DNA of 64,000 nt from Corynebacterium sp. (GTDB lineage Bacteria > Actinomycetota > Actinomycetes > Mycobacteriales > Mycobacteriaceae): assembly GCF_030532965.1 (NCBI RefSeq), contig NZ_JAUNKC010000006.1:58798-122797 (forward strand), read 5' to 3'. Position 1 is the first letter of the stretch. The number at the start of each line of letters is the position of its first letter. The notes under the pieces are model-generated. The model was not told where the DNA came from. It did not search any database and saw only the letters and a list, made by a program, of their open reading frames with translations. The translations under genes and the position numbers were made by a program. Of the stretch, positions 717 to 63,760 are shown one piece after another.

Positions 717-1469
717 TTATGCTTCGACCACCAACGTCAATTCCAACGAATCCGGCGTCGATTCAATCACCATGCCGGATTCCTCCAAAACGGTGCGCAC
801 CTGCGACAGTGACGTTGGCGCAGTCTCCGCTAACGCCAATGCCCGCGCCACCAGCCCTTTGTAGTGCTTATTGAAGTGGCTCACCACTTTTCGACTACCA
901 TCAGCAGCCACCGACTCCACCCGGACTGTGACAGCGCCGGGCGCCTTTCCCAATTGTTGGTACGTGCCGGAGCGAAGATCAACAACAAGCCCCGGGTAAT
1001 CCGCGATCGCCTCGGAAATCTTCGACCCCCACCGCTTTTTCATCGTTGGCGGTTTTTCCGACTCACCAGAACCTGCGATAGGTAGCTTGGTTCCACCGGA
1101 AAGCCGATAATTGGGGATCTGGTCGGTGGCTTTTAGCAGTCCAAACAACGCGTCGCCCACCGCTAGTCGCTCCAAGGCTGATGGCGGTAGGGAAGTGGCA
1201 TCGAGGGCGTCGAAAAGCACACCGGTGAACCGGAAAATAGCTGGCATTGTCGGCGCAGAGAACAATTCCTGATTCACGGCGATTAATGCACTAAGTTTTA
1301 TGGAAATCCCCAATGTGGCAAGGGCTTCTTCTTCAGGCAGCGCGATAAGATCCGCCGCGATCTCTTCCCGCACCCCATTCAATTGGGGAAACGACAACGT
1401 GGACAAATCAAGTGGCGCACCGGTACCACCTGCGGCCTTGGTTTCGGACGGGGGCAGAATAATTAACAT
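717..1469 (-). CDS. yaaA: YaaA family protein (DUF328/UPF0246)
   Basis: About 250 aa, the usual family length. In E. coli YaaA limits free iron and DNA damage during peroxide stress and belongs to a DNA-binding fold family; the role here is inferred from that. Visible marks are the N-terminal MLIILPPSETK and, near the C-terminus, SHFNKHYKGLVARALA, both family signatures. An in-frame start at 1490 would add seven residues, but the ATG at 1469 puts the conserved LIILPPSETK motif at the very N-terminus and is preferred. Soluble, with no signal peptide. It converges with the siroheme methylase and diverges from the acyltransferase; the 126 bp upstream presumably holds both promoters. One copy of the 11-mer GCTTTTCGACG (1208-1218, reverse) lies inside it, encoding LFDA. 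Confidence 0.85.
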   Translation of the reverse strand: MLIILPPSETKAAGGTGAPLDLSTLSFPQLNGVREEIAADLIALPEEEALATLGISIKLSALIAVNQELFSAPTMPAIFRFTGVLFDALDATSLPPSALERLAVGDALFGLLKATDQIPNYRLSGGTKLPIAGSGESEKPPTMKKRWGSKISEAIADYPGLVVDLRSGTYQQLGKAPGAVTVRVESVAADGSRKVVSHFNKHYKGLVARALALAETAPTSLSQVRTVLEESGMVIESTPDSLELTLVVEA

Positions 1470-1595
1470 GAAATCCAACTCTATACCCATCTACACCCAC
1501 AGGTGGTGCTAGATTCTGGTTTTCCCACACGACCAATTAACCTAGAACCGCACGTAACGAAAAATCATGGCAGTTTAAAAGGGGGATTGTAACCG

Positions 1596-3437
1596 GTGGC
1601 TTTAGATGTGGCTCAACCACCTACAACCCAGACCCCGCGAAAAGCCCAATTGCGGCGAGTATCCGCAATCGACGGATTGCGGGGGTTGGCAGTACTTTCG
1701 GTGGTTCTCTATCACTTCTTTGGCACCATCGCCCCCGGTGGTTTCCTCGGGGTCGATATGTTCTTCGTCCTGTCAGGTTTCCTCATCACCTCACTGCTTC
1801 TGCGCGAATACGCGGTGAATTCCCGCATCGATCTGCGGTTGTTTTGGCTCCGTCGGGCTCGGCGCATCCTGCCAGCCGCCATCGTGGTTCTGGTGATAGG
1901 CACCGCCGCAGCGGGGCTGGTTGGTGGCGACCCGGCGGTGGGCTTAAAACCCCAATTCATTGGGACTTTGGCTTTCGTGAACAACTGGATGCAAATCGCC
2001 GGAAGCGAAAGCTATTTCGCCGATTTCGGGGTTCAGATTTTCGCCCACTATTGGTCGCTGGCCGTGGAGGAGCAATTCTATGTGCTCTTCCCATTGCTCG
2101 TGGTGGTGCTACTTCGACAGTCTCGTGCAGCGTTGATTGTGGCCAGCGCCGGTTTATGCTGCGCCTCGTACGCCGCGATGCAGATCCTCTATTCCCCAGA
2201 GCTTGACCCAACCCGAGTGTATTACGGCACCGACACGCACTCCTTCGGCCTCCTCATTGGGGTTTTACTAGCCTGCTTTACGACGAGCACCTCCGCCGAT
2301 CCCCACACCGACTCCTGGCCGGTAACGCCTACCCGGCACGCCCCCGCGATGGGGATTGTGGGGCTCATCGGATTGGTAGCCTTAGTGTGTTTCACACCCG
2401 ACACCTCGGCATTCACGTACCGAGGTGGGCTTCTGGCAGCAAGCCTATTCACGATGATGCTGTTGTATTCGATCCTGCACCAACAAGGACCAGCCCATGC
2501 CTTCGTCAATACGAAGTCCACGCGGTGGCTGGGAAAAATATCATTTTCCCTCTATTTATGGCACTGGCCTGTGTACGTCATCATCACCGCCCTGACCCAC
2601 CATCCCGTCCGGTCAATCATCGCCCTGGTTGCATCTCTTTCATTAGCGCACCTCAGCTACACCTGGGTAGAAACCCCCATCCGACGCCACGGATATCGCC
2701 ACATTTGGAACATACTGCGCCCCAAACCCAGATTGATAATCATCGGGACCGGTATAACCCTGCTCATGACGGCCGGAATTGCGATAATACAATCCCCGAA
2801 CGAAACCGCCCTGGAACGGCAGCTTAAAGAACTATCCGCAGCCGCAACGACAACAACTGCGGCACCTGCGGGACCGGCGAACGTCGTCAAGCTAAGTCCC
2901 GGCCCGCATCCCGTTCCGGATAGCGCCGCGCTCACCGCCATTGGGGATTCTGTCATGCTAGCCAGTAGCGACGCCCTTAAACGCCGCTACCCACACATCC
3001 ACGTCGATGCTCAGGTTTCCCGCAATATCGATGCTGCCCCCGACATTCTTAGAAGTCTCGACGCGAAAGATGCCCTCGACCCGATCGTCATCTTAGGTTT
3101 CGGCACCAACGCAGAACTTGACCTCAATGCAGTAGAAACCACAATGACAATCCTCGGCCCCGACCGCATCGCAATTCTCGTCACCCCCTTCGGCGACCGA
3201 CCATGGATCCTTAAATCACACGACAACATCCGCACCGCGCACGCCGAATACCCGAACCTGTACATCGCCGATTGGTGTGGCAAAGCCCAGGCGGACCCTG
3301 CCATTTTGCATGACGACGAAATACATCCCACGGATATCGGAGCCGAAAAATACACCGAGGCTATCACCCAAGCCCTCGTGCAATGGGCAAACCACCGAAA
3401 CCCAGAAACCCCTACCTGCGACAAACCCCGACAATGA
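1596..3437 (+). CDS. OafA/YrhL-type membrane O-acyltransferase with extracytoplasmic SGNH domain
   Basis: 613 aa, GTG start. The N-terminal acyltransferase-3 domain (about 22-370) has a DGLRG box, the catalytic His at about 40 (VVLYHFFG), GGFLGVDMFFVLSGFLIT, an RRARRILPA loop and EEQFYVLFPLL (159-168). Roughly ten hydrophobic segments follow, the last at about 380-397. After an Ala/Thr linker comes an SGNH-hydrolase domain with GDS at 450-452, GTN, and a terminal DDEIHP giving the Asp/His pair (about 574/577). Such proteins move acyl groups, often acetyl, across the membrane onto cell-envelope glycans or glycolipids; the acceptor cannot be read from sequence. Its TGA overlaps the ATG of the downstream lipoprotein (ATGA), so the two are translationally coupled. 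Confidence 0.9.
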   Translation: MALDVAQPPTTQTPRKAQLRRVSAIDGLRGLAVLSVVLYHFFGTIAPGGFLGVDMFFVLSGFLITSLLLREYAVNSRIDLRLFWLRRARRILPAAIVVLVIGTAAAGLVGGDPAVGLKPQFIGTLAFVNNWMQIAGSESYFADFGVQIFAHYWSLAVEEQFYVLFPLLVVVLLRQSRAALIVASAGLCCASYAAMQILYSPELDPTRVYYGTDTHSFGLLIGVLLACFTTSTSADPHTDSWPVTPTRHAPAMGIVGLIGLVALVCFTPDTSAFTYRGGLLAASLFTMMLLYSILHQQGPAHAFVNTKSTRWLGKISFSLYLWHWPVYVIITALTHHPVRSIIALVASLSLAHLSYTWVETPIRRHGYRHIWNILRPKPRLIIIGTGITLLMTAGIAIIQSPNETALERQLKELSAAATTTTAAPAGPANVVKLSPGPHPVPDSAALTAIGDSVMLASSDALKRRYPHIHVDAQVSRNIDAAPDILRSLDAKDALDPIVILGFGTNAELDLNAVETTMTILGPDRIAILVTPFGDRPWILKSHDNIRTAHAEYPNLYIADWCGKAQADPAILHDDEIHPTDIGAEKYTEAITQALVQWANHRNPETPTCDKPRQ

Positions 3438-5103: not shown

Positions 5104-6291
5104 TTAATGAAGTAGCCTGCGTGCTACTTCGTAGAAGCTTTTGTTAATGATCGGTGCGCGGTTAAACCGAAGGGGACTGGTGGGGGTTCGGCGATGTCCG
5201 ATTCTTCCGGATGTCAGATCTTTTTCAATTCTGCCGTTTTTAGGTTTGGCTGGATTGTCGTCGTTTTCCATGTTGTGGCGTTTGCATAGTGGTGCCAAGT
5301 TGTTTTGTTCGGTGGCTCCGCCTTGGGAAAAAGCCGTGATGTGATGCTGTTGGCAGTGTTGCGCTGGGATACGACAGTCGGGGTGTACACACATGAGGTG
5401 TCCGGCGATGGAGATGAGACGTTGTTCGTCGCTGGCGAGCCGTTGCCGGATGGGGATTGGTGGGCTGAGCTCGATAGTGTCCGTTGTGGTTTTATACGCG
5501 ATTGTAGTGTAACCGTGGGGTTTAAGAATGAGGTCGGCGTATTCTGCGAGATCGATCATCCCGCCGGTTGTTGTTGCTACAGTTCCGTCGATGTGTTCGA
5601 CGGTTTCGGCGAGCGGGATGAGAATGAGCGGGCCATAGTGGTTGTCTGGTGTGCTGCCGGCGGCGGGGGTGCTGACCCGATTAACGATAAGCTGAGCGCG
5701 TGCTTCCTCAATGCTGCTGGCGTGATGTTGGTGAAAGAGCGCCTTGGCTTCGTCGTTAAGTGCCGTGAGCATGCGGTTTGCTTGTTCGCTGGTCAGTTTC
5801 ATCATGACGTGGTGCATGCCGTCGATATCGGGCGTTTTGCTGAAGCGGGCGTAGCTGGCGCGGGGTTTATTGGCGAGTTGTTCGTTGAGTTTAGTTACGC
5901 GAATCCGCATGTATTCCCCCAATTCGTCGGTTGTGGCGGATGCGCCGTAGCGGAGGAATTCAGTGCAAATGTTGTCACGGGGTACCCCGAGGTTGGACAG
6001 TTTGCGGCAGTATTTGGCTATGGTTGCAAGCTTTTCGACGCTCAACCGTGCGGCCGCAGCTTCGTGAAGCTCTGCGGTGGTGAAGAAACGGGCATTGCGG
6101 ATGAGTTTCGTGGCGTTATTGAAGGTGTCGCCGAGCGCTTGGGCAATGTCTTCCGGTTTTGGTTGTTCCGTTTTGATTTCAAGCAGCAACTCAGCACCGT
6201 GGCTGGTGAGATTGCGGTAACGGTTCAGCAGTACGCCCATGGTTTTGACGGTAGAGGCGTCGAAAAGCGATAGCAAGCGAAATGAGAACAT
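5104..6291 (-). CDS. DUF222 domain protein with C-terminal HNH endonuclease motif
   Basis: About 395 aa from the ATG at 6291. The frame extends to a TTG at 6363, and the ATG at 6240 is another possible start, so the N-terminus is uncertain. The first two thirds is a helical DUF222 (13E12-repeat-like) region. The C-terminal part has the HNH layout: CVHPDC, then HCQQHHITAFSQGG, then NNLAPLCKRHN, with the paired His residues and Cys-x4-Cys/Cys-x2-His positions expected for a beta-beta-alpha metal site. Actinobacteria carry many such proteins; a nuclease role is inferred from the motif and the target is unknown. Three copies of ATTGGGG/CCCCAAT and two inverted copies of GCTTTTCGACG (6030, 6258) lie in or next to this gene. 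Confidence 0.8.
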   Translation of the reverse strand: MFSFRLLSLFDASTVKTMGVLLNRYRNLTSHGAELLLEIKTEQPKPEDIAQALGDTFNNATKLIRNARFFTTAELHEAAAARLSVEKLATIAKYCRKLSNLGVPRDNICTEFLRYGASATTDELGEYMRIRVTKLNEQLANKPRASYARFSKTPDIDGMHHVMMKLTSEQANRMLTALNDEAKALFHQHHASSIEEARAQLIVNRVSTPAAGSTPDNHYGPLILIPLAETVEHIDGTVATTTGGMIDLAEYADLILKPHGYTTIAYKTTTDTIELSPPIPIRQRLASDEQRLISIAGHLMCVHPDCRIPAQHCQQHHITAFSQGGATEQNNLAPLCKRHNMENDDNPAKPKNGRIEKDLTSGRIGHRRTPTSPLRFNRAPIINKSFYEVARRLLH

Positions 6292-6428
6292 TCTTAAGCA
6301 ATATTTTCCCAGTTCACACGCCAGATAATTTCTTGCTGATAGTTTGTCAATTGGGGGAACCAAACCGGGGTTTCGGTGAGTCTAACTAATAATGTGCTCT
6401 GCATGAATTCCCCCAATGCGGGGGCTGC

Positions 6429-6442: not shown

Positions 6443-8200
6443 ATGATTACTCGTCTTTCTACGCTGTTTCTGCGCACACTGCGCGAAGATCCAGCTGATG
6501 CTGAAGTTCCTAGCCACAAGCTTCTAGTCCGCGCCGGTTATATCCGCCGTGTCGCTCCCGGTGTGTACACCTGGTTGCCGTTGGGGTTGCGGACGTTGCG
6601 CAAAATTGAGGCTGTGGTGCGCGAGGAGATGGATTCCATTGGTGCACAGGAGTTGTTGTTTCCTGCGCTGCTGCCTCGGGAACCGTATGAACAGACGAAT
6701 CGGTGGACTGAGTACGGGGAGTCTTTGTTTAGGCTCAAGGATCGTAAAAACGTCGACATGCTTTTGGGGCCTACCCACGAGGAGATGTTCACTGCTCAGG
6801 TGAAAGACTTGTACACATCGTATAAGGATTTCCCGGTTACGCTTTACCAGATCCAGACGAAGTACCGTGACGAAGAACGGCCTCGGGCAGGTATTTTGCG
6901 GGGCCGGGAGTTCGTGATGAAGGATTCGTACTCCTTCGATATGACGGATGCTGGTTTGGAACAGTCCTACGCCGCGCACCGCAAGGCATATCAGGCGATT
7001 TTTGATCGGCTGGGTGTTGAATACGTCATTTGTCAGGCAACCTCTGGCGCTATGGGCGGTTCGGCTTCGGAAGAGTTCTTGGCAGTTTCTCCCAATGGGG
7101 AGGACACATTCGTTCGGGCGACTGACGGTGACTACGCGGCGAACGTTGAGGCGGTCGTAACGCAACCTGGCGTTGCTATTGAAATCGCCGGTCAGCCAGA
7201 CGCGCAGGAATACGTTACGCCGGAATCGGAAACAATCGAGGCATTGGTAGCGTGGGCTAATAACGCAGGAATTACAGTCTCCGGCCGGGATGTTACCGCG
7301 GCGGACACATTGAAGTGCTTGGTGGTCAAGGTGCGGCAACCAGGCGCTGAGGACTGGGAGTTGACGGGTATCCTGTTGCCTGGCGATCGGGAAGTCGACG
7401 TCAAGCGTCTCGAGGCATCATTGGAGCCTGCAGAGGTTGAATTGGCAGTCGAGGAGGATTTCGCAAAGAACTCTTTCCTGGTTAAGGGGTATGTCGGTCC
7501 TCGCGGTCTGGCTGCTAATGGTGTGACGGTGCTTGCCGATCCCCGCGTGGCCGAGGGCACTTCGTGGATAACCGGTGCGGATGCGCCTCAACGGCATGTG
7601 ATTGGTCTGGTTGCTGGTCGTGACTTCACGGTGGATGGTTTTATCGAGGCTGCCGAGGTGCGCGAGGGCGATCCGGCGCCGGACGGTCAGGGCGTGCTCA
7701 CGCTGGAACGAGGCATCGAGATCGGCCACATCTTCCAATTAGGCAGGAAATATACCGAGGCGTTCGATGTGCAGATTCTCGACGAGAACGGTAAACGCGC
7801 AATCCCGACGATGGGTTCCTACGGCATTGGGGTTTCCCGGTTAATGGCGGTGTTGGCCGAGCAACGCCACGATGAAAAAGGCCTGAATTGGCCCGTAGCT
7901 GTAGCGCCGTATCATGTGCATGTTGTTGTGGCGAATAAGGATGAGGCCGCAGTCGCTGCTGGTGATCGCATCGTGTCCGAGCTGGATGTGGCGGGCATCG
8001 AGGTGCTTTTCGACGACCGGCCGAAGGTTAGCCCCGGCGTAAAATTTAAAGACGCTGAATTGCTCGGCATGCCGTTTGTTGTGGTGATCGGCAGGAGCTT
8101 TGCGGATGGAGTAGTCGAGCTGCGTGTGCGGGGTGGGGAGACTCTATCGGTTGCGGCCGACGACATTGTCTCCCAGCTTCTTAAGTTGCTTGCACGCTAA
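6443..8200 (+). CDS. proS: Prolyl-tRNA synthetase (bacterial type with editing domain)
   Basis: 585 aa; charges tRNA-Pro. Class II synthetase: motif 1 region around [21 protein letters not shown], motif 2 [19 protein letters not shown], motif 3 [14 protein letters not shown]. Between motifs 2 and 3, about residues 220-400, sits the long insertion that in bacterial-type ProRS clears mischarged Ala-tRNA-Pro (KCLVVKV and the block near GYVGPRGL). The C-terminal anticodon-binding domain ([10 protein letters not shown]..., [17 protein letters not shown]) closes the protein. An in-frame GTG-type start at 6416 was rejected because [17 protein letters not shown] is the usual N-terminus and a -10 box sits just upstream. 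One GCTTTTCGACG copy (8005) encodes VLFDDR. Essential backbone gene. Confidence 0.97.
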
Positions 8201-8201: not shown

Positions 8202-8723
8202 TTATATATTTCCCCAATGGGGCATCAGGTTTTTGCTGGTGCCCTCTTGTAGTTTGTCATCACCCGCGCGTTTTAAGCTGTTGAATGTGCCGATAAAGCC
8301 GATCACACAGTCGTTAAGTTACGCCAACGTTTTGGGCGGGTGTCGGGTAAGACGCCCGCCATCAAGCCCATTCGTCACACCGGCATGGCCAGTTCCTACA
8401 ACATGCTTATCGACGAACTTCGGGTTGCCGGATTTCATCGTGGCGTAGTTCGTCCCACACGTTGTCTTTTCTGCCATGCTTTGGTAGCCAGCTTCTGAAT
8501 AGAAGCGCAGCACCGGAATAGGGTATTCGGAATCATCGAACACGACCTGATCACCGGAAAGCCCCGCGATGTTGTGGACGAAATGAGCGTTTAAAGAAAC
8601 CGCCGCCCGAACGCTTTTTAGGCGTTCTTCTCCCACCGCGAAGGCCGCGGAGTCACCCAACGAATGACCAGCTACCACAATGCGCTTTGGAGCAATAAAA
8701 CGCTCATTGCGCGTTTGTGACGT
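8202..8723 (-). pseudogene. Remnant of an alpha/beta hydrolase (serine hydrolase)
   Basis: A decayed gene. One reading frame runs from about 8723 down to 8202 with a TAA at 8319-8321 splitting it; after the stop the same frame continues sensibly (VIGFIGTFNSLKRAGDDKL) to a TAA at 8202. The 5' end is missing: an in-frame stop lies at 8724-8726, directly before the beta-strand leading to the nucleophile elbow RIVVAGHSLGD. The Ser nucleophile (GHSLG) and a late GTGHAGVTNG that could supply the catalytic His are kept, but the N-terminal half of the fold is gone. Similar proteins are lipase/dienelactone-hydrolase-like. The longest intact piece (8319-8678, 119 aa) is unlikely to fold. It lies between proS and the beta-helix gene. 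Confidence 0.7.
8221..8243 (+). terminator. Hairpin after proS
   Basis: GGCATCAG / CTGGTGCC (one G-U pair) with a U-rich loop, 20 bases after the proS stop. The U tract behind it is short, so termination is likely but not certain. It overlaps the tail of the hydrolase remnant on the other strand. Confidence 0.5.
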
Positions 8724-10348: not shown

Positions 10349-11131
10349 TTAACCATTAGGGGTTGACAAAAGTGTAGCGATTCTGATACTTCCGATGCGC
10401 CAGGGAGTGGTTTGGGCGGTTTCGGCGGTCCTTCGCCAAAAGGCTTCGGTGGTTTCGGTGAGCTTTTCGACGGCCCCAATAGCGTCCTGATTGTTAGTCA
10501 AAGGTTGGTCTGGAGGCAGGATATCGCTTGGAATCTGATACCCGGCCGGGATCGCGGGTGGATTGGCAGCCGTGGTGAGGTTTTCTGTCAGCGCCGCCAA
10601 GACTTTTTCGTGCTGATCTTCAAGATCATCCAACCGGTCGCGGGTGGGGTTATCGGCAAAGGCGCGGATGGTGCCGATCGTGTACAGAACACCCAATTCG
10701 CGTTCGATGGCTGATGCTACTGCGGATTTGTCGGCGGTGGCTGATGCACCGGTGTCTTCAATGAAGGAGGTGAAGTCAATGCCGTCGAAAAGCTGCGAGG
10801 GGCGCTCAGGGGTTGGGGTCAAGGCGTAGGTTTGGCTGTAGACCTCGACAACAACGGGTAGGGATTCTTGGGGAACCTGCGACAATTGTTCTTCAATTCC
10901 GGCGGTTCCGGGGTTCGCGACTGGGATGGGGGATTTATTAGGATCGCAGGATTCGGGGACGCTTCCGTCTTCAAAATGGCCACAAAGCCGGGTAATTTCA
11001 GCCAGCACTGGTTCTTTTAATGAATCGGAAGTTTGCTTATAGATGCTGGTTAAGGCCGGATCTGGTTCGGGTGCCGCGCAGCCGGAAAGGGTTAAAAGTA
11101 CCATGCCGCAAATAAACAAACGTCGAGTCAT
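10349..11131 (-). CDS. DUF4439 domain lipoprotein
   Basis: 260 aa from the ATG at 11131. The signal peptide is MTRRLFICGMVLLTLSGC with lipobox TLSGC, so a lipid-anchored exoprotein is predicted. The mature part is Ala/Pro-rich and helical; residues about 130-235 contain the ferritin-like DUF4439 segment ([19 protein letters not shown], then a long DDLEDQHEKVLAALTENL helix). The function of the family is unknown. In mycobacteria a DUF4439 gene (Rv2843) likewise neighbours rimP, which supports the call. It diverges from rimP with only 19 bp between start codons, so the two promoters must overlap the coding regions. The longer frame to 11413 runs over rimP and is an artefact. Confidence 0.78.
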   Translation of the reverse strand: MTRRLFICGMVLLTLSGCAAPEPDPALTSIYKQTSDSLKEPVLAEITRLCGHFEDGSVPESCDPNKSPIPVANPGTAGIEEQLSQVPQESLPVVVEVYSQTYALTPTPERPSQLFDGIDFTSFIEDTGASATADKSAVASAIERELGVLYTIGTIRAFADNPTRDRLDDLEDQHEKVLAALTENLTTAANPPAIPAGYQIPSDILPPDQPLTNNQDAIGAVEKLTETTEAFWRRTAETAQTTPWRIGSIRIATLLSTPNG

Positions 11132-11721: not shown

Positions 11722-12720
11722 GTGAATATTGATGTCCAAGCACTGAAAAATATTGAGGCCGAAAAAGGGATTCCGGTTAGGGAATTAACTGAAACCATCG
11801 CCGGTGCTTTGATGTTTGCCTACCGAGAGTTCAAAGACGCTCCGGCTGAAGAAGGCACCAAAGCCCGTGTTGATATCGATATTGCAACCGGCAAGGTTGC
11901 GGTCATTGTCAGTGAGCTTGACGACGAAGGAAACGTCGTCACCGAATACGACGACACGCCTGCTAATTTCGACCGCATTGGGGCATCAACCGTGCGCGAT
12001 TCCATCGTGAAGCGGCTGCGGGAAGCAGAGACCCGCCAAGCATACGATGCCTATTCCGAATATGAAGGGCGAGTAGTTTCGGGCATTGTTCAAGCAGATG
12101 TTTACGCCAACGAACGCGGAATCGTCATCGTTCATTTGGGAACCGAAGCCGACGGGCAAGACGGTGTACTTCTGCCCGCCGAGCAACTGCCCGGGGAAAA
12201 ACTCAAACACGGCGACCGGGTGAAGTCCTACGTGGTCGGTGTCAATAACGCGGGTCGCAATCTCAATATCAACCTTTCCCGTACTCACCCAGAACTCGTC
12301 CGTAAACTGTTCGAATTGGAAATCCCGGAAGTAGCTGACGGTTCTGTCGAGATCGTTTCCATCGCACGCGAAGCAGGCCACCGATCAAAAGTCGCGGTTC
12401 GGGCGACAGCGAAGGGTCTCAATGCCAAGGGGGCCTGCATCGGGCCACGCGGTCAGCGGGTGAATAACATTATGAAGGAACTGGGCGGTGAGAAGATCGA
12501 CATCATCGATTTCTCCGAAGACCCAGCCGCCTATGTGGGTAACGCATTGGCGCCGTCGAAGGTGGTGCACGTAGAGATTGTCGACCTGGAAGCGCAAACC
12601 GCTCGGGTGACTGTTCCTGATTATCAACTGTCCTTGGCCATTGGTAAAGAGGGACAAAATGCTCGTCTGGCAGCCCGGTTAACGGGCTGGAAAATCGACA
12701 TCCGATCGGATGCCGCGTAA
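11722..12720 (+). CDS. nusA: Transcription termination/antitermination protein NusA
   Basis: 332 aa, GTG start preceded by GAGAGGA. NusA binds RNA polymerase and the nascent RNA and controls pausing, termination and antitermination. Order of domains: N-terminal RNAP-binding domain (about 1-110), S1 domain (YEGRVVSGIVQADVY onward, about 115-185), KH1 (about 200-270, with KGACIGPRGQRVNNI) and KH2 (about 270-332, ending LSLAIGKEGQNARLAARLTGW). The acidic C-terminal repeats of E. coli NusA are absent, as is usual in actinobacteria. One ATTGGGG word falls at 11977. Confidence 0.96.
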   Translation: MNIDVQALKNIEAEKGIPVRELTETIAGALMFAYREFKDAPAEEGTKARVDIDIATGKVAVIVSELDDEGNVVTEYDDTPANFDRIGASTVRDSIVKRLREAETRQAYDAYSEYEGRVVSGIVQADVYANERGIVIVHLGTEADGQDGVLLPAEQLPGEKLKHGDRVKSYVVGVNNAGRNLNINLSRTHPELVRKLFELEIPEVADGSVEIVSIAREAGHRSKVAVRATAKGLNAKGACIGPRGQRVNNIMKELGGEKIDIIDFSEDPAAYVGNALAPSKVVHVEIVDLEAQTARVTVPDYQLSLAIGKEGQNARLAARLTGWKIDIRSDAA

Positions 12721-12841: not shown

Positions 12842-13195
12842 ATGGGTAGTAACGGGTCGAGTGTGTCGTCGAAAAGCACAACGAAACATCGCCGTCCCAT
12901 CCGAATCCGAACCTGTATCGCTCATAAAACTCGACACCACGACAGCCAATTACTGCGGGTTGTGGCGGCACAACCGGAATCGGCAGAGATCGTTCTTGTT
13001 CCCGATCCTAACCGCAGTCTCGGCGGGCGTGGTTGTTGGATCACCCCCACTCTCGAGGCGGTTGAGCTAGCAGAAAAGCGCAACGCATTTCGTCGTGCGC
13101 TTAGGGTGTCTGCTCAGGTAGACACCGGTCCTGTACGTAAGTACCTCGCAGCGAATCCGCTGGACCTAGAGAAAAGAAAGAAGACCGAACACTGA
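12842..13195 (+). CDS. ylxR: YlxR family RNA-binding protein (DUF448)
   Basis: 117 aa, ATG with AAGGAG six bases upstream. A small basic protein between nusA and infB, the standard position. Marks: PIRIRTCIAHKTRH (the family has RTCxxCR; here the second Cys is replaced by His) and VPDPNRSLGGRGCWITP. In other bacteria YlxR acts as a nucleoid-associated or RNase P-linked regulator; the role here is not settled. A GCTTTTCGACG copy (12867, reverse) lies in the N-terminal extension, encoding SSKST. Confidence 0.85.
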   Translation: MGSNGSSVSSKSTTKHRRPIRIRTCIAHKTRHHDSQLLRVVAAQPESAEIVLVPDPNRSLGGRGCWITPTLEAVELAEKRNAFRRALRVSAQVDTGPVRKYLAANPLDLEKRKKTEH

Positions 13196-16371: not shown

Positions 16372-16824
16372 ATGGCTGATCCCGCACGCGCCCAACGAAT
16401 GGCGAAGCGAATCTTGCACATCGTGGCTTCTGCTATCGAACGGGAAATTAAAGACCCCCGTCTGCAATTTGTCACGATTACAGACTGTCGGGTTACGGGT
16501 GACTTGCATGATGCAACGGTATTTTACACAGTGCGCGGCATGCAGCTTTCCGACGAGCCCGATGTGGAAGCCGCAGCTGAAGGCTTGCGCCGAAGCAGTG
16601 GACAGCTGCGTCGCATAGTCGGCGAGCAACTAAGCGTCCGGTTCACCCCGACGTTGAGTTTCGAATTAGACACCGTGCCGGAAACATCCGCCCGGATGGA
16701 AGACTTATTGGCACGTGCCCGGCAACGTGACGCGGAACTTGCAGAGTTACGCAAAAATGCGACCCCAGCCGGGGACGCAAACCCCTATAAAACTGATGTT
16801 TCAGCTGAGGAAGACAACCGCTAG
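16372..16824 (+). CDS. rbfA: 30S ribosome-binding factor A
   Basis: 150 aa. Cold-shock associated factor needed for 16S 5'-end maturation. KH-like fold; marks are [54 protein letters not shown] and [21 protein letters not shown] at 16372 chosen for the AAGGAGAG eight bases upstream; the GTG at 16330 in the same frame is weaker. The nrnA gene follows 32 bp downstream, as in mycobacteria. Confidence 0.94.
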
Positions 16825-19269: not shown

Positions 19270-19377
19270 TACCTGTGCTTTTCGACGCCGAACTGCCGCG
19301 CGGTGGGGCAGTGGGGCCTGAATGTCCTAGCTGTGTGGTTAGATTTAAAAAGAAGACGAGGAGGTGTGAGCGGGCTG

Positions 19378-20831: not shown

Positions 20832-21794
20832 CTACAACGTGTTGGGCCGGGCAACGAAGGTCGTCGACAAGCGGCTGCCGGATTCTTTCACAAGCGCAAC
20901 TGCTTGACCGTTCGGTGCCACCGCAGCATGAACACCACGCAATCCGCGCGGCTCAAGCCACTTACCCATCGATAGATCCAACGCCTGGCTTGCAGTTACC
21001 TCAAGCACCGGGAAACACCGAACGAGCGCCGCATCCAGGCTTAACGAAAGTCGGGGGTTTTCTTCAATGTCCGCAAGCGGCAGTGCATCCGCCAGGGTGA
21101 AATTCCCAACCGCTAACCTGCGCAATGCCGTTAAATGACCACCAACCCCCAGCTGGGCGCCCACATCCCGGGCCAGGGACCGAATATAGGTACCGGAGGA
21201 ACACTCAACCACAACATCAACGTCGATAAACTCCTCCGACGCAACAACGTTTGTAATATCAAACCGAGAAACCGTCACCGGACGCTCCGGCAATTCCACA
21301 GTTTCACCGGCACGCACTCGCTCATGGGCGCGTTTACCGGCGACCTTAATGGCGCTCACAGCAGCTGGTCGCTGCATAATATCCCTCGTGTGGTCTGCGA
21401 CCGCAGCCGCAATATCCGCCTGTGTAATCGCAGCAGGGGAACAGCGGGTAATAACATCGCCCTCCGCATCATCCGTGGTGGTCGATGCCCCCAACCGAAT
21501 GGTAGCGGAATACGCCTTCGTGGCAGCCACCATATGCGCCAAAAACCGCGTTCCCCGTTCAATGCCGACAACCAAAACCCCGGTCGCCATCGGATCAAGG
21601 GTACCCGCATGTCCAACCCGTTTCGTTTTAAATGCCCGCCGCAGTTTTCCCACCACATCATGCGAGGTCATGCCAGCCGGTTTATCCACTACCACCAGGC
21701 CAGAAGTGGCCAGCGGATCGGGTTGGGTCACAGGGGGCTCATCAAAGCTCATAGGTGAAAGTTTAAGCGCACTGTATGGCGTTTGCGATTTCAT
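20832..21794 (-). CDS. truB: tRNA pseudouridine-55 synthase
   Basis: 320 aa from ATG 21794, or 306 aa from ATG 21752 (MSFDEPPV). Makes pseudouridine 55 in tRNA T-loops. Marks: LVVVDKPAGMTSHDVVGKLRR, the catalytic block VGHAGTLDPMATGVLVVGI with the nucleophilic Asp, and SSGTYIRSLARDVG. The C-terminal 80 residues form the actinobacterial TruB extension. The 21794 start would leave 17 bp to the divergent ribF start; a TAAGAT on the minus strand six bases before it suits a leaderless transcript, whereas no Shine-Dalgarno precedes 21752. Confidence 0.93.
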   Translation of the reverse strand: MKSQTPYSALKLSPMSFDEPPVTQPDPLATSGLVVVDKPAGMTSHDVVGKLRRAFKTKRVGHAGTLDPMATGVLVVGIERGTRFLAHMVAATKAYSATIRLGASTTTDDAEGDVITRCSPAAITQADIAAAVADHTRDIMQRPAAVSAIKVAGKRAHERVRAGETVELPERPVTVSRFDITNVVASEEFIDVDVVVECSSGTYIRSLARDVGAQLGVGGHLTALRRLAVGNFTLADALPLADIEENPRLSLSLDAALVRCFPVLEVTASQALDLSMGKWLEPRGLRGVHAAVAPNGQAVALVKESGSRLSTTFVARPNTL

Positions 21795-24232: not shown

Positions 24233-24536
24233 GTTATTCTTGATTGCCAAGCGACGGGGTGGGGGTGGATTGCTGGGGTTGCTGGCAGTATAAAGCAACG
24301 ATTCCCCGGGGCGCGCGTAGTGTTTGCGCTGGTAAATGCGAAGAAATTTGTGCTTGTCGACGTTAGTGGGGTGCGGCTTTGCTGAAAGGTCTTTTAAGCA
24401 TGAATAAGAAGTTCTCATAAGTGCACGTTACGTGCTATACTCTGACCTCGTTGCCTAGATTTAATAACAAACAAAACCCCTAAGACGGCACCGATGACCG
24501 TCGATAAGCACGAATGTCAAAGAGGAGACGTGCATA
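24233..24536 (+). promoter_or_regulatory. pnp leader and promoter region
   Basis: About 300 bp between the rpsO terminator and pnp. The best promoter element is TATACT (24436-24441) in the context GTGCTATACTCTG, giving a leader of some 90 nt; a minus-strand frame here (24155-24418) has no support. In E. coli pnp controls itself through RNase III cleavage of its leader; no clear long stem was seen here. Confidence 0.5.
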
Positions 24537-29319: not shown

Positions 29320-30099
<780 letters not shown>

Positions 30100-45993: not shown

Positions 45994-47103
45994 ATGGCTG
46001 CAAAGAAAAGCACCAAAACCGCAGTTTCGGCTGGCGGCGACCGGCAGAAAGCACTCGATGCTGCATTGGCATTGATTGAAAAGGATTTTGGCAAAGGTGC
46101 CGTGATGCGTCTTGGGGACGACAATCGTCCGCCGATTCGTGCGATCTCCTCGGGAAATACCGCGATCGATGTTGCCCTAGGGATCGGCGGTTTCCCACGC
46201 GGACGTATCGTAGAGATTTATGGGCCGGAATCCTCTGGTAAAACCACGGTGGCGTTGCATGCAATTGCCAGTGCTCAGCGGGAAGGCGGGATCGCGGCAT
46301 TTATCGACGCGGAGCACGCGCTTGATCCAGAATATGCCCGTAAACTCGGCGTTGATACCGATGCGTTACTGGTTTCACAGCCGGATCACGGTGAGCAGGC
46401 TCTTGAAATCGCAGACATGTTGGTGCGATCTGGTGCTATCGACATTATTGTTATTGACTCGGTGGCTGCGCTTACCCCGAAGGCCGAAATCGAGGGGGAA
46501 ATGGGCGACAGCCATGTGGGTTTACAGGCCCGCCTTATGAGCCAGGCGCTGCGCAAAATGACGGGTGCCCTCTATAACTCCGGTACTACTGCCATCTTCA
46601 TCAACCAGTTGCGCGAAAAAATCGGCGTGATGTTCGGGTCCCCGGAGACTACGACCGGTGGTAAGGCATTGAAGTTTTATGCTTCAGTGCGGTGTGATGT
46701 GCGTCGGATTCAGACGTTGAAAGACGGACAAGATGCAATTGGTAACCGGACAAAGCTGAAGGTTGTCAAGAATAAGGTCTCACCGCCTTTCAAAGTTGCA
46801 GAGTTCGACATTATGTATGGCGAGGGAATTTCTCGGGAATCTTCGTTGATCGATATGGGTGTCGACAATGGCATTATTAAGAAATCCGGTTCGTGGTTCA
46901 CTTATGAAGGAGACCAACTAGGCCAGGGCAAAGAAAAAGTGCGTATGCACTTGAAGAACAATCCAGAATTGGCAAATGAGATCGAGCAGAAGATTCTGAA
47001 GAAGCTCGGAGTTGGCGAATACGCGCAGGCTGCTGATGAGCTTTCCGACGAACCTGTCGATATGGTCCCTAATATTGACTTCGACGACGAGACTGATGAC
47101 TAA
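45994..47103 (+). CDS. recA: Recombinase RecA
   Basis: 369 aa, ATG with AAGGA seven bases upstream. Strand exchange and SOS coprotease. Marks: Walker [16 protein letters not shown] (at about 76), [20 protein letters not shown] (split: GDSHVG, QALRK), [21 protein letters not shown] (split: NQLREKIGV), and the acidic C-terminus ending DFDDETDD. No intein, in contrast to M. tuberculosis recA. Overlaps recX by 8 bases. Confidence 0.98.
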
Positions 47104-51101: not shown

Positions 51102-52240
51102 CGGTTGATGGTCGCTTGATACACCTGGATACGGCTTTGCGGAGTAAAACCAAGTTGTTGGTTTATTCGGCACATGGCCACATTAGAGTTGGCGTTGCTG
51201 GTAAAGACGCGTTCCAGCTCTGGCCACTGGTTGGCCGTAGTTATCAAACTAGCTTCTTTTAGTGCTGTGCCGAGTCCGGCTCCGCGAAAGTTTTCTGCGA
51301 TCACGGTTGAGCCTTGATCCGCAACGGTGGGATCTGAATCTGCCAGCCTGGTCGTGTCGGAGAAGCCGATAGGGTGGCCGTCCTTCAGCAGTACCGTGGT
51401 GATGTTTTCATTTGCTTTTCGACGCAATAAGGCCCGCGCTTGTTCTAGCCGCTGCTTCGTCCATGGTTGTGGGTCTACCGCCAAGTTGCCGACGGGTATA
51501 TCGGTGCTCGCGGCGTCGAAAAGCGTGAGCATCCCAGAAACTAGTTCAGGGCTCGGATCGTGATTGAGATAGCTGCAAAAACTATATCCGTTTGGCAGTA
51601 TGGGCAGTGGAAGCCCGCGTTTAGCAATAACGGGGATATAGCCGTGGGTTTCATCGTGGGCGAGGCTGAAGCCAGCTTCAGCTATTGCCTGGGCAAATCG
51701 TGGATTTAGATCACCGTCGGCGAGCGGTACTGGGTGCCATAACCGAACTATCTGACGGTCTAACCGCCTGGCCAACTCCTTGGTCTGATGAAGCAAAGTC
51801 AACCAGTGCTCGGTTTCGGTTTCGTCCCCAGGTTCACCCGGAATTGGGGCGATCTCGGCATCTAAAATCACATCGCAGTCAATGCCGTTGGTGTGCGCCT
51901 GAAGCGGCACTGACGCCTCGATATAGCCGAGTAGGTCGGCGTCGACAAGCGGTGAGGTAGGCGAGTCCGTATACGCCGAAATGACGGGGTAATTCAGTGC
52001 GGACATCGCAGAATCGGTCGCTGCCGCGCTTCCGGTTATTGCCGCCAAAATGACGGTGTGCGATTGGGGATTCTCCTTCAGTGACTCGATGACTGCCCCA
52101 GCCGAGGTAGAGGTTGCTGTATCGCCGGAAACGTCCTGCGCGGCGAGATTGGCGGAGAATACGAACGACAACAATGCGTCGCTTGGATCGCAATCTGTGA
52201 TACCAAGCGGCGGTTGTTCAAATTGGAAAAAGGCAGTCAT
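51098..52240 (-). CDS. GNAT-like acetyltransferase (two-domain)
   Basis: 380 aa from ATG 52240 (MTAFFQFEQPPLG). The C-terminal half has the clear GNAT acetyl-CoA site: VIAENFRGAGLGTALKEASL (R/Q-x-x-G-x-G/A loop) and NSNVAMCRINQQLGF. The N-terminal half is a second, degenerate GNAT-like domain. Substrate unknown; two-domain GNATs in actinobacteria include mycothiol synthase, but this one does not show its usual substrate residues that I could name. Ends by overlapping the converging membrane protein gene. A GCTTTTCGACG copy (51514, reverse) encodes TLFDAAS. Confidence 0.82.
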   Translation of the reverse strand: MTAFFQFEQPPLGITDCDPSDALLSFVFSANLAAQDVSGDTATSTSAGAVIESLKENPQSHTVILAAITGSAAATDSAMSALNYPVISAYTDSPTSPLVDADLLGYIEASVPLQAHTNGIDCDVILDAEIAPIPGEPGDETETEHWLTLLHQTKELARRLDRQIVRLWHPVPLADGDLNPRFAQAIAEAGFSLAHDETHGYIPVIAKRGLPLPILPNGYSFCSYLNHDPSPELVSGMLTLFDAASTDIPVGNLAVDPQPWTKQRLEQARALLRRKANENITTVLLKDGHPIGFSDTTRLADSDPTVADQGSTVIAENFRGAGLGTALKEASLITTANQWPELERVFTSNANSNVAMCRINQQLGFTPQSRIQVYQATINR

Positions 52241-54631: not shown

Positions 54632-55554
54632 AACCACAGGTCCCCGTAGTGATTGTAGGCCCCACTGCCTCCGGTAAGTCCGCACTGGCGATAGCAATAG
54701 CACAGGAATATGGTGGCGAAATCGTCAACGTGGATTCCATGCAGCTTTATCGGGGCATGGACATTGGAACCGCTAAACTTCCGGAATCCGAACGCGGCGG
54801 AATACCACATCATATGCTTGATGTTTGGCGAGTTACAGAGACAGCTTCAGTTGCGCGCTTTCAATCGGAAGCAGTTGCGGTTGTTGAGGACATCAGTCGA
54901 CGCGGCAAGCTCCCAGTGTTAGTTGGTGGTTCCATGCTCTACGTCCAGTCGCTTATCGACGATTGGCAGTTTCCACCCACAGACGAAACCGTGCGCCTCA
55001 AGTGGGAAGAACGACTTGAGAAACATGGAGTCGACGAATTGCACAATCAATTGGCGAAGTTGGATCCAGAAGCTGCCGAAATAATCGAAGACAAAGATCC
55101 CCGCCGGACCGTTCGGGCGTTGGAAGTAATTGAGCTAACCGGCCAGCCATTTAAAGCCAGTCAGCCCTCCAAAACCGCACCGCCGCGATGGGGCAGCATT
55201 TTACTTGGTTTAGAAACCACTCCGGAATGGTTGAATCCACGTATCGAAGAACGAACTCGCCAGATGTTTCAAGCAGGTTTTATCGAAGAAGTACAACGGT
55301 TAGTCAACACGGAAGGTTTGATTGCAGATTCAACGGCGGGACGCGCCATTGGGTACGCCCAAGTTTTGGCGGCGATGGCTGGCGAGCTTTCTTGGGCGGA
55401 AGTTGAAGAGCGAACGACGATCGCAACACGGCGCTATGTGCGACGGCAAAAGAGCTGGTTTAAAAAGGATCCACGGATTACCTGGATACCAGCGGCGACG
55501 GATACACAAGCCCATGCAACCGCAGTGATAGAACGCAGATCTGTAGGTAAATAA
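54628..55554 (+). CDS. miaA: tRNA dimethylallyltransferase (MiaA)
   Basis: 308 aa; ATG 54628 overlaps the previous stop as ATGA, and an upstream ATG at 54610 in frame is less likely. Adds the isopentenyl group to A37 of tRNAs reading UNN codons. Walker A GPTASGKSALA, the DSMQLYRGMDIGTAK block with the catalytic Asp, HHMLDVW, VLVGGSMLYVQSL and the end TRRYVRRQKSWFKKDPRITW (split: RRQKSWF). dapF follows 60 bp downstream. Confidence 0.96.
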   Translation: MKPQVPVVIVGPTASGKSALAIAIAQEYGGEIVNVDSMQLYRGMDIGTAKLPESERGGIPHHMLDVWRVTETASVARFQSEAVAVVEDISRRGKLPVLVGGSMLYVQSLIDDWQFPPTDETVRLKWEERLEKHGVDELHNQLAKLDPEAAEIIEDKDPRRTVRALEVIELTGQPFKASQPSKTAPPRWGSILLGLETTPEWLNPRIEERTRQMFQAGFIEEVQRLVNTEGLIADSTAGRAIGYAQVLAAMAGELSWAEVEERTTIATRRYVRRQKSWFKKDPRITWIPAATDTQAHATAVIERRSVGK

Positions 55555-55614: not shown

Positions 55615-56514
55615 ATGAATGCTAGTAGCGATCATGGTACTCTTCCGTTTCTGAAAGGACACGGAACAGAAAATGATTTTGTGATTATTTGTGATCCTGA
55701 TGCCCACCAGGAATTGCATCCGGAATTCATTGCCGCGCTTTGTAATAGGCGCTCAGGCATTGGCGGTGATGGATTGCTCCGGGTAGCCCGAACCGGTGCG
55801 CTTTTCGACGCTGGCCTGATCACCGAAATCCCAGCGGGTGTTGATCGTTCCGATTGGTTCATGGATTATTACAACGCTGACGGATCGATTGCGGAAATGT
55901 GCGGGAATGGCACCCGGGTTTTTGCCCATTTCGTTCGCAGTCGGGGATTGGTGACCACAGATTCGTTTACGATTGGCACCCGCGCAGGTGGGAAAGAGGC
56001 CACCGTCTTTAACTGCGACGACCTCACCGCTGATGTTTCGGTGGAAATGGGGGAACCGGTAGTAACTGGAATATCTACCTGCGAGATCGGCGATCGCAGC
56101 TTTGCTGGTTTAGGTGTCGATATGGGCAACCCGCACTTGGCGTGCGTGGTTCCTGATTTAACTGCTAGCGATTTAGCGGACCTAGAGCTGGTTCAGCCCG
56201 TTTTCGACCAGGAGTTTTTCCCAGCGGGGGTCAATGTCGAGATTTTAACTGCTTTGACCACTGACACGGAAACTCCAATGTGCCACATGAGGGTGTACGA
56301 ACGCGGTGTCGGCGAAACACGTTCCTGTGGCACCGGCACAGTTGCTGCGGCACGTGCGGCTCTTGCTGATGCTGGTATTGACCTAGGAAGTGTTCGGGTT
56401 GTTGTCCCTGGCGGCGAGGTGCTCGTAACCCTAACAGAAACGGGATCGCAGCTCCGGGGACCATCAAAAATCATCGCTGAAGGGGTCGTTTCGAAAACAG
56501 CGGTTTTGCCATAA
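55615..56514 (+). CDS. dapF: Diaminopimelate epimerase
   Basis: 299 aa, ATG with AAGGA upstream. Turns LL-DAP into meso-DAP for peptidoglycan and lysine. PLP-free two-thiol mechanism: both active-site Cys are present, [11 protein letters not shown] and [11 protein letters not shown]. Further marks are [18 protein letters not shown] and [23 protein letters not shown] copy (55800) encodes ALFDAGL. Downstream is a strong bidirectional terminator. Confidence 0.96.
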
Positions 56515-58471: not shown

Positions 58472-59054
58472 GTTTCCTTCTCCTCTTCTCGATACTCCAC
58501 AGCGGTTCTATATAAGCGGAACCTAAGTTTTGGTGTGATTCTTATGGTTTGGGTTCGCGGTTTGCACGGGGCTTAATGTGCCGTTTACGTCCCTATATAA
58601 GAATCGAACTCTCTATGAGATTACCAAAGTTTTCCATTCAGAATAATAATGTTAACCCGCTTTTCTTAAAACGGTCTTAACTGTCAGCTTCTGATATTAC
58701 AGTAAATTCACCCTTAAAGATATTCGTTTTGGAGCGGGATTTCATCTTTAAACCTCTACTTGAATCTTAAAATATGTGCTGGTTGACATATTTGAAAGTG
58801 GGTAAAACCAGCAATTATTGGATGCGGTACCGTTTATATTTTTGCTGGCAGTGGCATTTTATGGCTACGGGTCGGACGTCCACCAAGGAACGAATTATCT
58901 AAGAAAGACTAGGCTTTTCGTTATGTTTAGCAAGGGGCGGTTCTGATGTTTTCATAAGATTAAAGTTCTTTAATCTTTGTTGATGTGTGCAATAAAAATG
59001 ACTGCTGTCAAAGGTTGCGCTGGATTTTCGTCGAAAAGCAAACCGAAAACAGAA
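58472..59054. other. Long AT-rich intergenic region
   Basis: About 580 bp, AT-rich throughout. It must hold the promoter of the LRR protein gene (minus strand). A TTGACA (58793-58798) with only a poor -10 partner (TTATTG) is seen on the plus strand. One GCTTTTCGACG copy (59029-59039, reverse) lies at the end. Only short frames; no gene, RNA or repeat recognised. Confidence 0.5.
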
Positions 59055-59612: not shown

Positions 59613-59614
59613 TT

Positions 59615-63659: not shown

Positions 63660-63684
63660 CGCCACCGCTATGACCGCGCGACGT

Positions 63685-63722
63685 AACGGGCTGGGAACAC
63701 TTAAAGTGGGTGCCTGCCCGTT
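63685..63722 (+). terminator. Terminator after uraA
   Basis: AACGGGC / GCCCGTT enclosing a second stem CACTT / AAGTG, followed by TTTTTG. Its U tract runs into a GCTTTTCGACG copy (63726-63736). Confidence 0.82.
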
Positions 63723-63760
63723 TTTGCTTTTCGACGCTCCAAGCGTCCGCGCGACAAAGG

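What the first reader, a model, noticed from the sequence alone, without database searches (positions are those of the whole stretch)
1208..63736. An 11-mer, GCTTTTCGACG, is scattered 14 times with no strand bias
Seven copies lie on each strand. By chance an 11-mer should occur about 0.03 times on both strands of 64 kb, so this is a very large excess. Copies lie in coding sequence in several frames (encoding LFDA, LFDG, VEKL, SSKST and others), in intergenic DNA, in the terC riboswitch leader and beside a terminator, so codon use cannot explain it. Even strand use speaks against Chi or FtsK-orienting (KOPS) sites, which are skewed. It resembles DNA-uptake sequences, or a binding site for a nucleoid or segregation protein. 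I know of no described corynebacterial element of this form. Copies are denser in 1-13 kb (seven) than after it, and two convergent pairs sit 220-320 bp apart (6030/6258, 10462/10783), with the partial copy at 887 and 1208 making a third.
Basis: partly seen in the sequence, partly recalled or inferred. Interest (0 to 1): 0.8.

Follow-up and report, generated by a model that had tools for sequence, protein, structure and literature searches.

The report
Corynebacterium genome-wide DNA self-tag word
Many Corynebacterium chromosomes, but hardly any of their plasmids or phages that were checked, are sprinkled with one short DNA word about every two thousand letters, and it behaves like the 'own DNA' tags that Neisseria and Haemophilus use when taking up DNA from outside.

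Summary
The unit is a gapped word, GCTT-NN-CGACG: 1,875 copies in this genome against 96 controls. Among 31 genera sampled only Corynebacterium is strongly enriched. Of 151 Corynebacterium genomes, 104 carry 221 or more copies (form GCTTVNCGACG) and 47 carry 123 or fewer. Eight of those 47, plus one genome with both words, carry a one-letter dialect, GCTT-NN-CGATG (625-1,337 copies). Core letters are rigid. Sites are conserved in place against the sister species at 82% identity (37 of 51; controls 11 of 42). Plasmid-like contigs hold 5 where about 127 are expected; a 33-kb prophage holds none. There is no significant replichore skew. Same-strand copies avoid each other within about 1.5 kb; opposite-strand copies do not. 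A DNA-uptake-signal (DUS-like) self-tag fits best (0.56). ComEC and DprA are in 151 of 151 genomes and a TadA-type ATPase in 145, so the machine is there but does not explain who has the word; the reader protein was not found. A Chi-like site for an AdnAB-type enzyme is the main rival. No function was tested.

The parts
1208..1218 (-). GCTTTTCGACG, sense in ORF 717-1490(-), peptide VLFDA; not compared with G026
6030..6040 (+). GCTTTTCGACG, antisense in ORF 5104-6363(-); intact in G026
6258..6268 (-). GCTTTTCGACG, sense in ORF 5104-6363(-); three core mismatches in G026
8005..8015 (+). GCTTTTCGACG, sense in proS-like ORF 6416-8200; intact in G026
10462..10472 (+). GCTTTTCGACG, antisense in ORF 10349-11413(-); intact in G026
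10783..10793 (-). GCTTTTCGACG, sense in ORF 10349-11413(-); intact in G026
12867..12877 (-). GCTTTTCGACG, between genes upstream of infB; one core mismatch in G026
19277..19287 (+). GCTTTTCGACG, between ORFs 17971-19269 (MatE) and 19303-20175; not compared with G026
38346..38356 (+). GCTTTTCGACG, sense in ORF 38188-38760; intact in G026
39287..39297 (-). GCTTTTCGACG, between genes upstream of ORF 39376-40479; intact in G026
51414..51424 (+). GCTTTTCGACG, antisense in ORF 51098-52267(-); intact in G026
51514..51524 (-). GCTTTTCGACG, sense in ORF 51098-52267(-); intact in G026
55800..55810 (+). GCTTTTCGACG, sense in ORF 55615-56514; intact in G026
59029..59039 (-). GCTTTTCGACG, between genes; not compared with G026
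63726..63736 (+). GCTTTTCGACG, between genes, abutting a terminator-like hairpin; not compared with G026
532..542 (+). variant GCTTATCGACG; not compared with G026
2275..2285 (+). variant GCTTTACGACG, intact in G026
2882..2892 (-). variant GCTTGACGACG, intact in G026
8405..8415 (+). variant GCTTATCGACG; not compared with G026
11916..11926 (+). variant GCTTGACGACG, intact in G026
16545..16555 (+). variant GCTTTCCGACG, two core mismatches in G026
20862..20872 (-). variant GCTTGTCGACG, core intact in G026
22276..22286 (+). variant GCTTATCGACG, two core mismatches in G026
24352..24362 (+). variant GCTTGTCGACG upstream of pnp, core intact in G026
24499..24509 (-). variant GCTTATCGACG upstream of pnp, intact in G026
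25244..25254 (-). variant GCTTGACGACG in pnp (antisense), intact in G026
29481..29491 (+). variant GCTTGTCGACG, intact in G026
29821..29831 (-). variant GCTTCTCGACG, intact in G026
30804..30814 (+). variant GCTTTCCGACG, intact in G026
34357..34367 (+). variant GCTTTACGACG upstream of ftsK, one core mismatch in G026
36006..36016 (-). variant GCTTTGCGACG in ftsK (antisense), one core mismatch in G026
47040..47050 (+). variant GCTTTCCGACG, two core mismatches in G026
51940..51950 (-). variant GCTTGTCGACG, core intact in G026
54951..54961 (+). variant GCTTATCGACG, one core mismatch in G026

Best explanation
The word is the core of a DNA-uptake-signal-like self-tag of Corynebacterium. SHOWN: a non-palindromic 11-base word, GCTT-NN-CGAYG with a preferred C at position 13, is kept at about one per 1.7 kb in the window's genome and one per 2.3 kb in 400 kb of its sister's, on both strands, in genes and between them, with far more conservation of the individual sites than control words have; a copy goes with fewer copies on the same strand for about 1.5 kb but not on the other strand; it is nearly missing from the plasmids and phages examined; one group of genomes spells letter 10 as T instead of C throughout; other genomes have neither spelling in force. 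The reader protein is not identified.
For: Copy number and about 20-30-fold excess over the reversed word. Genus restriction: in a family sample of 101 genomes and 31 genera, 4 of the 6 Corynebacterium genomes are strongly enriched; the largest excess in the other 30 genera is about 1.7-fold. Two states in the genus: 104 of 151 with 221 or more GCTTVNCGACG, 47 with 123 or fewer. Dialect CGATG in 9 of 151 (625-1,337 copies; next highest 213), 8 of them among the 47; on a 20-genome tree the five T-dialect genomes sampled and one wordless genome form one group (support 1.00). Rigid core: 357 perfect against 20 reversed in G026, while the 27 one-letter neighbours together stay near control, only A at position 1 clearly raised (40 against 7). 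In-place conservation at 81.7% identity: 37 of 51 sites intact (16 of 18 of the TTTT form), reversed-word controls 11 of 42. Mobile DNA: 5 seen against about 127 expected on 18 readable stretches of small contigs of 11 genomes, three of which were shown to carry relaxases; a 33-kb gap of unchanged GC holds terminase and portal genes; three named phages and three named plasmids of the genus hold 8 in about 252 kb (one of these plasmids is also among the small contigs). No significant replichore skew (rows). Intergenic excess in one of three genomes (92 of 369 in G026 against 15% of bases), inverted close pairs resembling terminators, and one sense frame favoured in all three, as reported for known uptake sequences (passages read of PMC2346458, PMC1939737, PMC3630211). 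Uptake genes: ComEC 151 of 151, TadA-type ATPase over the cut-off in 145 of 151, DprA 151 of 151; TadA, TadB, TadC and Flp homologues in 20 of 20 loci, TadE- and TadF-like in 19. Tad pili drive transformation in the actinobacterium Micrococcus luteus (PMC4322843, passages).
Against: ComEC, TadA and DprA are equally present in genomes without the word, so nothing here ties the word to uptake; and five of the six genomes without a TadA match over the cut-off (G021, G075, G092, G113, G119, drafts) are word-rich. No residue in Flp, TadA, TadB, TadC, TadE, TadF, ComEA or ComEC separates C- from T-dialect genomes (0 in each of 8 alignments, 10 C and 5 T genomes), while the non-uptake control HolA has 6. 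No intergenic excess in G090 (27 of 156) or G000 (10 of 59). Near-miss words are hardly in excess (by hand: about 314 against 291 controls in G026, about 102 against 142 in G090), whereas allowing one mismatch adds 21% for kingDUS, and ratios of 1:1.15 and 1:1.45 are quoted for Neisseria, which I take as totals (passages); the two counts are not strictly like for like. The orientation-specific exclusion was not shown for a known DUS and is natural for Chi. The one genome of 36 without a strong AdnAB-type match (G073) also has a decayed word. No listing of the searches named natural transformation of a Corynebacterium in its title or abstract start.
Confidence: 0.56

Rival explanations
1. Chi-like recombination site: the word, read in one orientation, tells an end-resecting AdnAB-type helicase-nuclease to stop degrading and load RecA. 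Copies spread evenly on each strand serve both ends of a break anywhere on the chromosome; foreign DNA lacks them.
For: Orientation-specific exclusion with near-independence of the two strands is what a one-way reader would select. In-place conservation and scarcity on mobile DNA fit. A strong match to a UvrD-helicase/PD-(D/E)XK protein of the window's genome (called AdnAB-type by me from its domains) is in 35 of 36 genomes searched, and the one without it, G073, has a decayed T-dialect word (213 copies against 625-1,337). [quoted passage not shown]
Against: RecC in 0 of 151 genomes, so no RecBCD. Nine of ten weak or lost genomes and ten of ten wordless genomes keep the AdnAB-type protein, so the enzyme is not enough. 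No significant replichore skew. Nine specified bases, a 20-30-fold excess, absence from a quarter of the genus sample (39 of 151) and a one-letter dialect inside a genus are unlike the Chi sites I recall.
Confidence: 0.22
2. Site for a chromosome-structure, segregation or nucleoid protein that needs a copy every few kb.
For: Sub-Poisson spacing per strand in 400 kb of G026, variance/mean 0.68 and 0.51 in 5-kb bins (0.97 and 0.57 in 20-kb bins); scarce on plasmid-like contigs.
Against: No significant strand skew in 40 sampled 20-kb stretches of two chromosomes; opposite-strand copies show no repulsion and can overlap; the word is absent or re-spelled in other species of the genus.
Confidence: 0.13
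3. Recognition word of a DNA methyltransferase or restriction system that protects or marks the chromosome.
For: Presence varies among species and shows dialects; two small contigs of C. deserti carry Type ISP restriction enzymes.
Against: Methylation sites are not normally enriched 20-30-fold nor evenly spaced per strand (recalled); no methyltransferase was tied to the word. Not tested by methylome.
Confidence: 0.06
4. Chance, codon usage, a protein motif, or copies of a repeat family.
For: The L-x-D sense frame is the commonest context (147 of 369 in G026, 71 of 156 in G090, 31 of 59 in G000).
Against: Other sense frames, three antisense frames and intergenic DNA also hold it, reversed-word controls are 1/20 to 1/30, NN varies and flanks diverge, and plasmid-like contigs of similar GC lack it.
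Confidence: 0.01

Closest known systems
DNA uptake sequence (DUS) of Neisseriaceae, read by the minor pilin ComP
   Same: About 10-letter directional word, hundreds to thousands of copies, both strands, in and between genes, inverted pairs in terminator-like hairpins, dialects of one or a few letters that follow the tree, scarce on mobile DNA
   Different: Different phylum and unrelated sequence; gapped core; near-miss words hardly enriched; Tad-type pilus genes; uptake not shown; reader protein unknown
Uptake signal sequence (USS) of Pasteurellaceae
   Same: Nine specified bases plus a weaker flank; similar density (1,471 copies in 1.83 Mb in H. influenzae, from passages of PMC1939737); no orientation bias; even spacing reported by Karlin et al. 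as cited there
   Different: USS flank is AT-rich (recalled), here C-rich; different phylum; same-strand-only exclusion not shown for USS
Chi sites (RecBCD, AddAB)
   Same: Orientation matters, chromosomal enrichment, foreign DNA lacks it (recalled for Chi)
   Different: No RecC in the genus sample; no significant replichore skew; longer word, stronger excess, dialect and absences inside one genus
KOPS / FtsK-orienting sequences
   Same: Short directional chromosomal word
   Different: KOPS point to the terminus on each replichore (recalled); here both orientations are used about equally on both halves

Membership tests
DNA uptake sequence (DUS/USS) | Strong genome-wide excess of a short word on both strands | tested here: met
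DNA uptake sequence (DUS/USS) | No orientation bias along replichores | tested here: met
   rows summed by hand by chromosome half: leading 113 to lagging 92 in G026, 76 to 69 in G090; not significant
DNA uptake sequence (DUS/USS) | Scarce on plasmids, phages and islands | tested here: met
DNA uptake sequence (DUS/USS) | Dialects differing by few letters and congruent with phylogeny | tested here: met
   (one dialect pair, 20-genome tree)
DNA uptake sequence (DUS/USS) | Single-mismatch words also in excess | tested here: inconclusive
   little or no excess; comparison figures are not like for like
DNA uptake sequence (DUS/USS) | Competence machinery present | tested here: met
   but equally present without the word
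DNA uptake sequence (DUS/USS) | Word increases DNA uptake or transformation | not testable with these tools
   needs experiment
DNA uptake sequence (DUS/USS) | Specific pilin receptor (ComP-like) | tested here: inconclusive
   no diagnostic residues in Tad/Com proteins; no ComP search made
Chi | Cognate helicase-nuclease regulated by the word | tested here: inconclusive
   RecC 0 of 151; AdnAB-type 35 of 36; regulation not testable
Chi | Replichore strand skew | tested here: not met
Chi | Orientation-dependent function | tested here: inconclusive
   same-strand exclusion is indirect
KOPS | Strong skew towards the terminus | tested here: not met

The most novel reading that the evidence does not exclude
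Mycolic-acid actinobacteria have an uptake-signal system of their own: a directional self-tag read one way by a Tad-pilus/ComEC machine, with at least two dialects that act as mating barriers between Corynebacterium species. The genus, C. deserti included (a close relative of the industrial C. glutamicum, as I recall), would then be or have been naturally transformable with self-recognition.
Probability: 0.5. Interest if true: 0.92.

Novelty: new variant of a known kind. Interest (0 to 1): 0.85.

Why it matters
Uptake signal words are known to me only from two proteobacterial families. A third, unrelated case in Gram-positive, mycolate-walled bacteria would let the old questions (why such words evolve, what reads them, whether they isolate species) be asked with an independent replicate. 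It would also predict natural transformation, and which DNA is accepted, in a genus of industrial and medical weight. If it is instead a Chi for an AdnAB-type enzyme, it bears on an open question about that enzyme. Either way the word is a sharp, cheap marker that tells chromosomal DNA from plasmid or prophage DNA in many Corynebacterium species.

Tried and rejected
Replichore-skewed word (KOPS, fork-directed Chi): rejected; the apparent skew in the listing looks like an artefact, since rows of a contig appear to be listed forward strand first and then cut. Codon or protein motif: rejected. Presence of ComEC, TadA or DprA as the discriminator: no. Loss of a ComEC nuclease domain in word-bearing genomes: suggested by ORF lengths, but Pfam shows only the Competence domain in the nine long and short forms scanned, so not claimed. 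Other words in ten weak or wordless genomes: none of comparable strength in 40 kb each, 23.7 kb for G073. Diagnostic residues of a reader among Tad/Com proteins: none. RecBCD-Chi: no RecC. Literature: the exact 11-mer occurs in 5 papers and its complement in 4, seen only as listings; I took them for primer or coincidental matches without reading them. Searches combining Corynebacterium with uptake-sequence, competence, Tad or Chi terms gave no report of the word in their listings, several of which were cut. PMC5217627, found that way, showed other Corynebacterium motifs only (passages and outline); PMC4046766 passages gave nothing; PMC5030088 passages gave only background; PMC146255 is not held.

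Calls that led nowhere: the one genome-contig scan, with a MatE query, returned two Nocardia loci and one clostridial one; a mistaken three-base query.
Full report
OBSERVATION. Shuffles give 0.05, a third-order Markov model 0.12. In the window's genome it occurs 360 + 336 times against 23 for the word read backwards. Single-letter variants in the window are enriched mainly at positions 5 and 6, so the unit is GCTT-NN-CGACG: 34 sites in the window, 1,875 in the genome against 96 controls, one per 1.7 kb.

ANATOMY. In G026 (identified as Corynebacterium mustelae: its contig C2 has the length of plasmid NZ_CP011543.1 and its relaxase matches that record at 100%) 369 sampled sites prefer T (or G, A) at position 5 and T at 6, avoid G at -1 and prefer C at 13. 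Part of the 3-periodic flank is codon phase, but in G090 a C-rich 3' flank (GCTTTTCGACGCC.ccctcCacc) recurs between genes and in several frames, so it belongs to the word there. The nine core letters are rigid: in 0.76 Mb of G026 there are 357 perfect words (20 reversed), while the 27 one-letter neighbours sum to about 314 against 291 for their reversed controls, only A at position 1 being clearly raised (40 against 7). In 0.4 Mb of G090 there are 145 perfect (4 reversed) and about 102 neighbours against 142 controls, with small rises for T at position 10 (9 against 1) and A at 2 (7 against 1) (sums by hand).

WHERE IT LIES. In G026, with 84.8% of sampled bases called coding by a simple gene caller, 369 sites fall as 147 in the L-x-D sense frame, 21 in the other two sense frames, 101 antisense, 92 between genes and 8 on gene edges; the intergenic share is in excess (p about 1e-6). 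In G090 (27 of 156 intergenic, 84.4% coding) and G000 (10 of 59, 84.1% coding) it is not. Close inverted pairs occur, several with A/T-rich ends like terminators, for example 21 and 43 bases start to start in G026. In 20 stretches of 20 kb spread round each of two chromosomes both orientations are used about equally on both halves (summing its rows, leading to lagging 113 to 92 in G026 and 76 to 69 in G090, not significant).

SPACING. Neighbouring sites alternate strand more than chance: opposite against same 125 to 60 in G026, 86 to 41 in G090, 24 to 9 in the window (pooled p about 1e-11). In 400 kb of G026, 115 of 171 steps alternate against 86.0 +/- 6.6 when strands are permuted, 0 of 10,000 reaching it. 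Circularly shifting one strand against the other gives 101.6 +/- 5.4 (p 0.0125), so a large part comes from spacing within each strand. For the TTTT form alone (67 sites) the effect is weak (p 0.03 and 0.09). Pooled pair counts over three sample sets, against uniform re-placement within 20-kb blocks, show same-strand pairs depleted (observed/expected 0.29 below 250 bp, then 0.65, 0.55 and 0.69 up to 1.5 kb, 0.84 up to 2 kb), while opposite-strand pairs are not consistently so (convergent 1.34, 0.70, 1.14, 0.74; divergent 1.25, 1.07, 1.08, 1.20 in the same four bins, no z beyond 1.7). The word therefore appears to work with a direction.

CONSERVATION IN PLACE. Aligning 90,545 bases of the window's genome with G026 (81.7% identical), 51 sites could be compared without gaps (6 more unaligned, 2 gapped): 37 keep the core, 9 have one change, 4 two, 1 three. 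In the other direction 37 of 44 (6 unaligned). Reversed-word controls are intact in 11 of 42, one-letter neighbours in 6 of 61. Of 18 TTTT-form sites compared, 16 are intact (p about 1e-5 against controls).

SELF AND NON-SELF. Small separate contigs of 11 word-rich genomes (18 readable stretches) carry 5 sites where about 127 would be expected at each genome's density, at GC 0.51-0.61. Of the proteins scanned from them, three are MobF/TrwC relaxases and one a phage tape-measure protein. A 33-kb gap in G026 (233,819-267,205; GC 0.526 against 0.527) holds terminase and portal genes. Three named Corynebacterium phages and three plasmids hold 8 in about 252 kb, 5 of them in phage Juicebox (GC 0.68); of the T dialect they hold 6. 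The first 20 kb of G117 contig C2 equal pCdes1 of C. deserti, so G117 is C. deserti; that plasmid is in both tallies.

DISTRIBUTION AND DIALECTS. Of 151 Corynebacterium genomes, 104 have 221 or more GCTTVNCGACG and 47 have 123 or fewer, with nothing between. In a family sample of 101 genomes and 31 genera only Corynebacterium genomes (4 of the 6 drawn) are strongly enriched; the largest excess elsewhere is about 1.7-fold. De novo word counts in 40 kb (33 kb for G000) around the tad and com loci of 20 genomes put GCTT-NN-CGACG first among gapped words in the word-rich genomes whose output I could see, except G087 where a CRISPR-like repeat outranks it, and revealed GCTT-NN-CGATG in several 'wordless' ones; part of that output was cut. 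Genus-wide, GCTT-NN-CGATG has 625-1,337 copies in 9 of 151 genomes, next highest 213. Eight of the nine are low for CGACG; G142 has both (244 GCTTVNCGACG, 1,337 CGATG). Thirty-nine genomes have neither in force, some with a small excess (for example G132, 113 against 33 controls). In ten weak or wordless ones checked no word of comparable strength appears. On a tree of 20 genomes from six proteins, rooted at the midpoint, the five T-dialect genomes and wordless G014 form one group (support 1.00), with G014 inside it (0.99); the C dialect is found in the main group and in G099 on the deep branch; G015, G030, G146 and G039 have none. So the C word is probably old in the genus, T derived once in this sample, and losses repeated; this is inference from 20 genomes.

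WHAT READS IT. ComEC is in 151 of 151 genomes, a TadA-type ATPase over the cut-off in 145 (148 with any match), DprA in 151. TadA, TadB, TadC and Flp homologues are found in 20 of 20 tad loci and TadE- and TadF-like ones in 19, with and without the word (ORFs). The kind of machine used for transformation by Micrococcus luteus is thus present, but presence does not separate the groups, and five of the six genomes without a TadA match over the cut-off are word-rich drafts. RecC is in 0 of 151. PD-(D/E)XK nucleases of the PDDEXK_1 family are in 151 of 151. One of two adjacent helicase-nucleases of the window's genome (UvrD-type helicase plus PDDEXK_1; I call the pair AdnAB-type) has a strong match in 35 of 36 genomes searched; G073, the exception, has a decayed T-dialect word. 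No residue of eight Tad/Com proteins separates dialects, while the control HolA has six.

VERDICT. The features taken together match DNA uptake sequences better than anything else I know: saturation, no significant replichore skew, terminator-like pairs, a dialect along the tree, scarcity on mobile DNA. Two features differ from what I could read of known DUS: near-misses are hardly enriched, and exclusion acts only within a strand. The second is what a one-way reader predicts, be it directional uptake or a Chi-reading nuclease. I put uptake at 0.56 and a Chi-like role at 0.22. Function is untested; 'it is a DUS' is not claimed as membership.

Noticed in passing
G073 (handle): The only one of 36 Corynebacterium genomes searched without a strong AdnAB-type match; it also has the fewest PDDEXK_1 matches of 151 (1) and a decayed T-dialect word. 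Either a link or general decay.
   Followed up: partly
L072/L092 (G087 tad and com loci, probably L092): About 31 copies of a CRISPR-like repeat containing GTGTTCCCCGCG dominate the word counts.
   Followed up: no
L080/L100 (G014), L079/L099 (G094), L086/L106 (G143), L084/L104 (G146): DnaA-box-like words (TTATCCACA, TTGTCCACA; name recalled) occur 5-7 times in 40 kb around the tad and com loci where at most about 0.2 are expected.
   Followed up: no
L016 and L017 (G090, 1.925 and 2.100 Mb): Two 20-kb stretches with no copy of the word; no phage gene recognised among the four proteins scanned. Possibly recently acquired islands.
   Followed up: partly
window 56570-58471 (-): 633-aa ORF with two DUF285 stretches ('Mycoplasma protein of unknown function'), unexpected to me in a Corynebacterium.
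   Followed up: no
L117 and L118 (small contigs C2 and C3 of G117, C. deserti): Each carries a large Type ISP restriction-modification enzyme.
   Followed up: no
G142 (handle): Holds the T dialect in bulk (1,337) and a smaller excess of the C dialect (244 against 52 controls): a mixed or mid-switch genome.
   Followed up: no
   Followed up: partly
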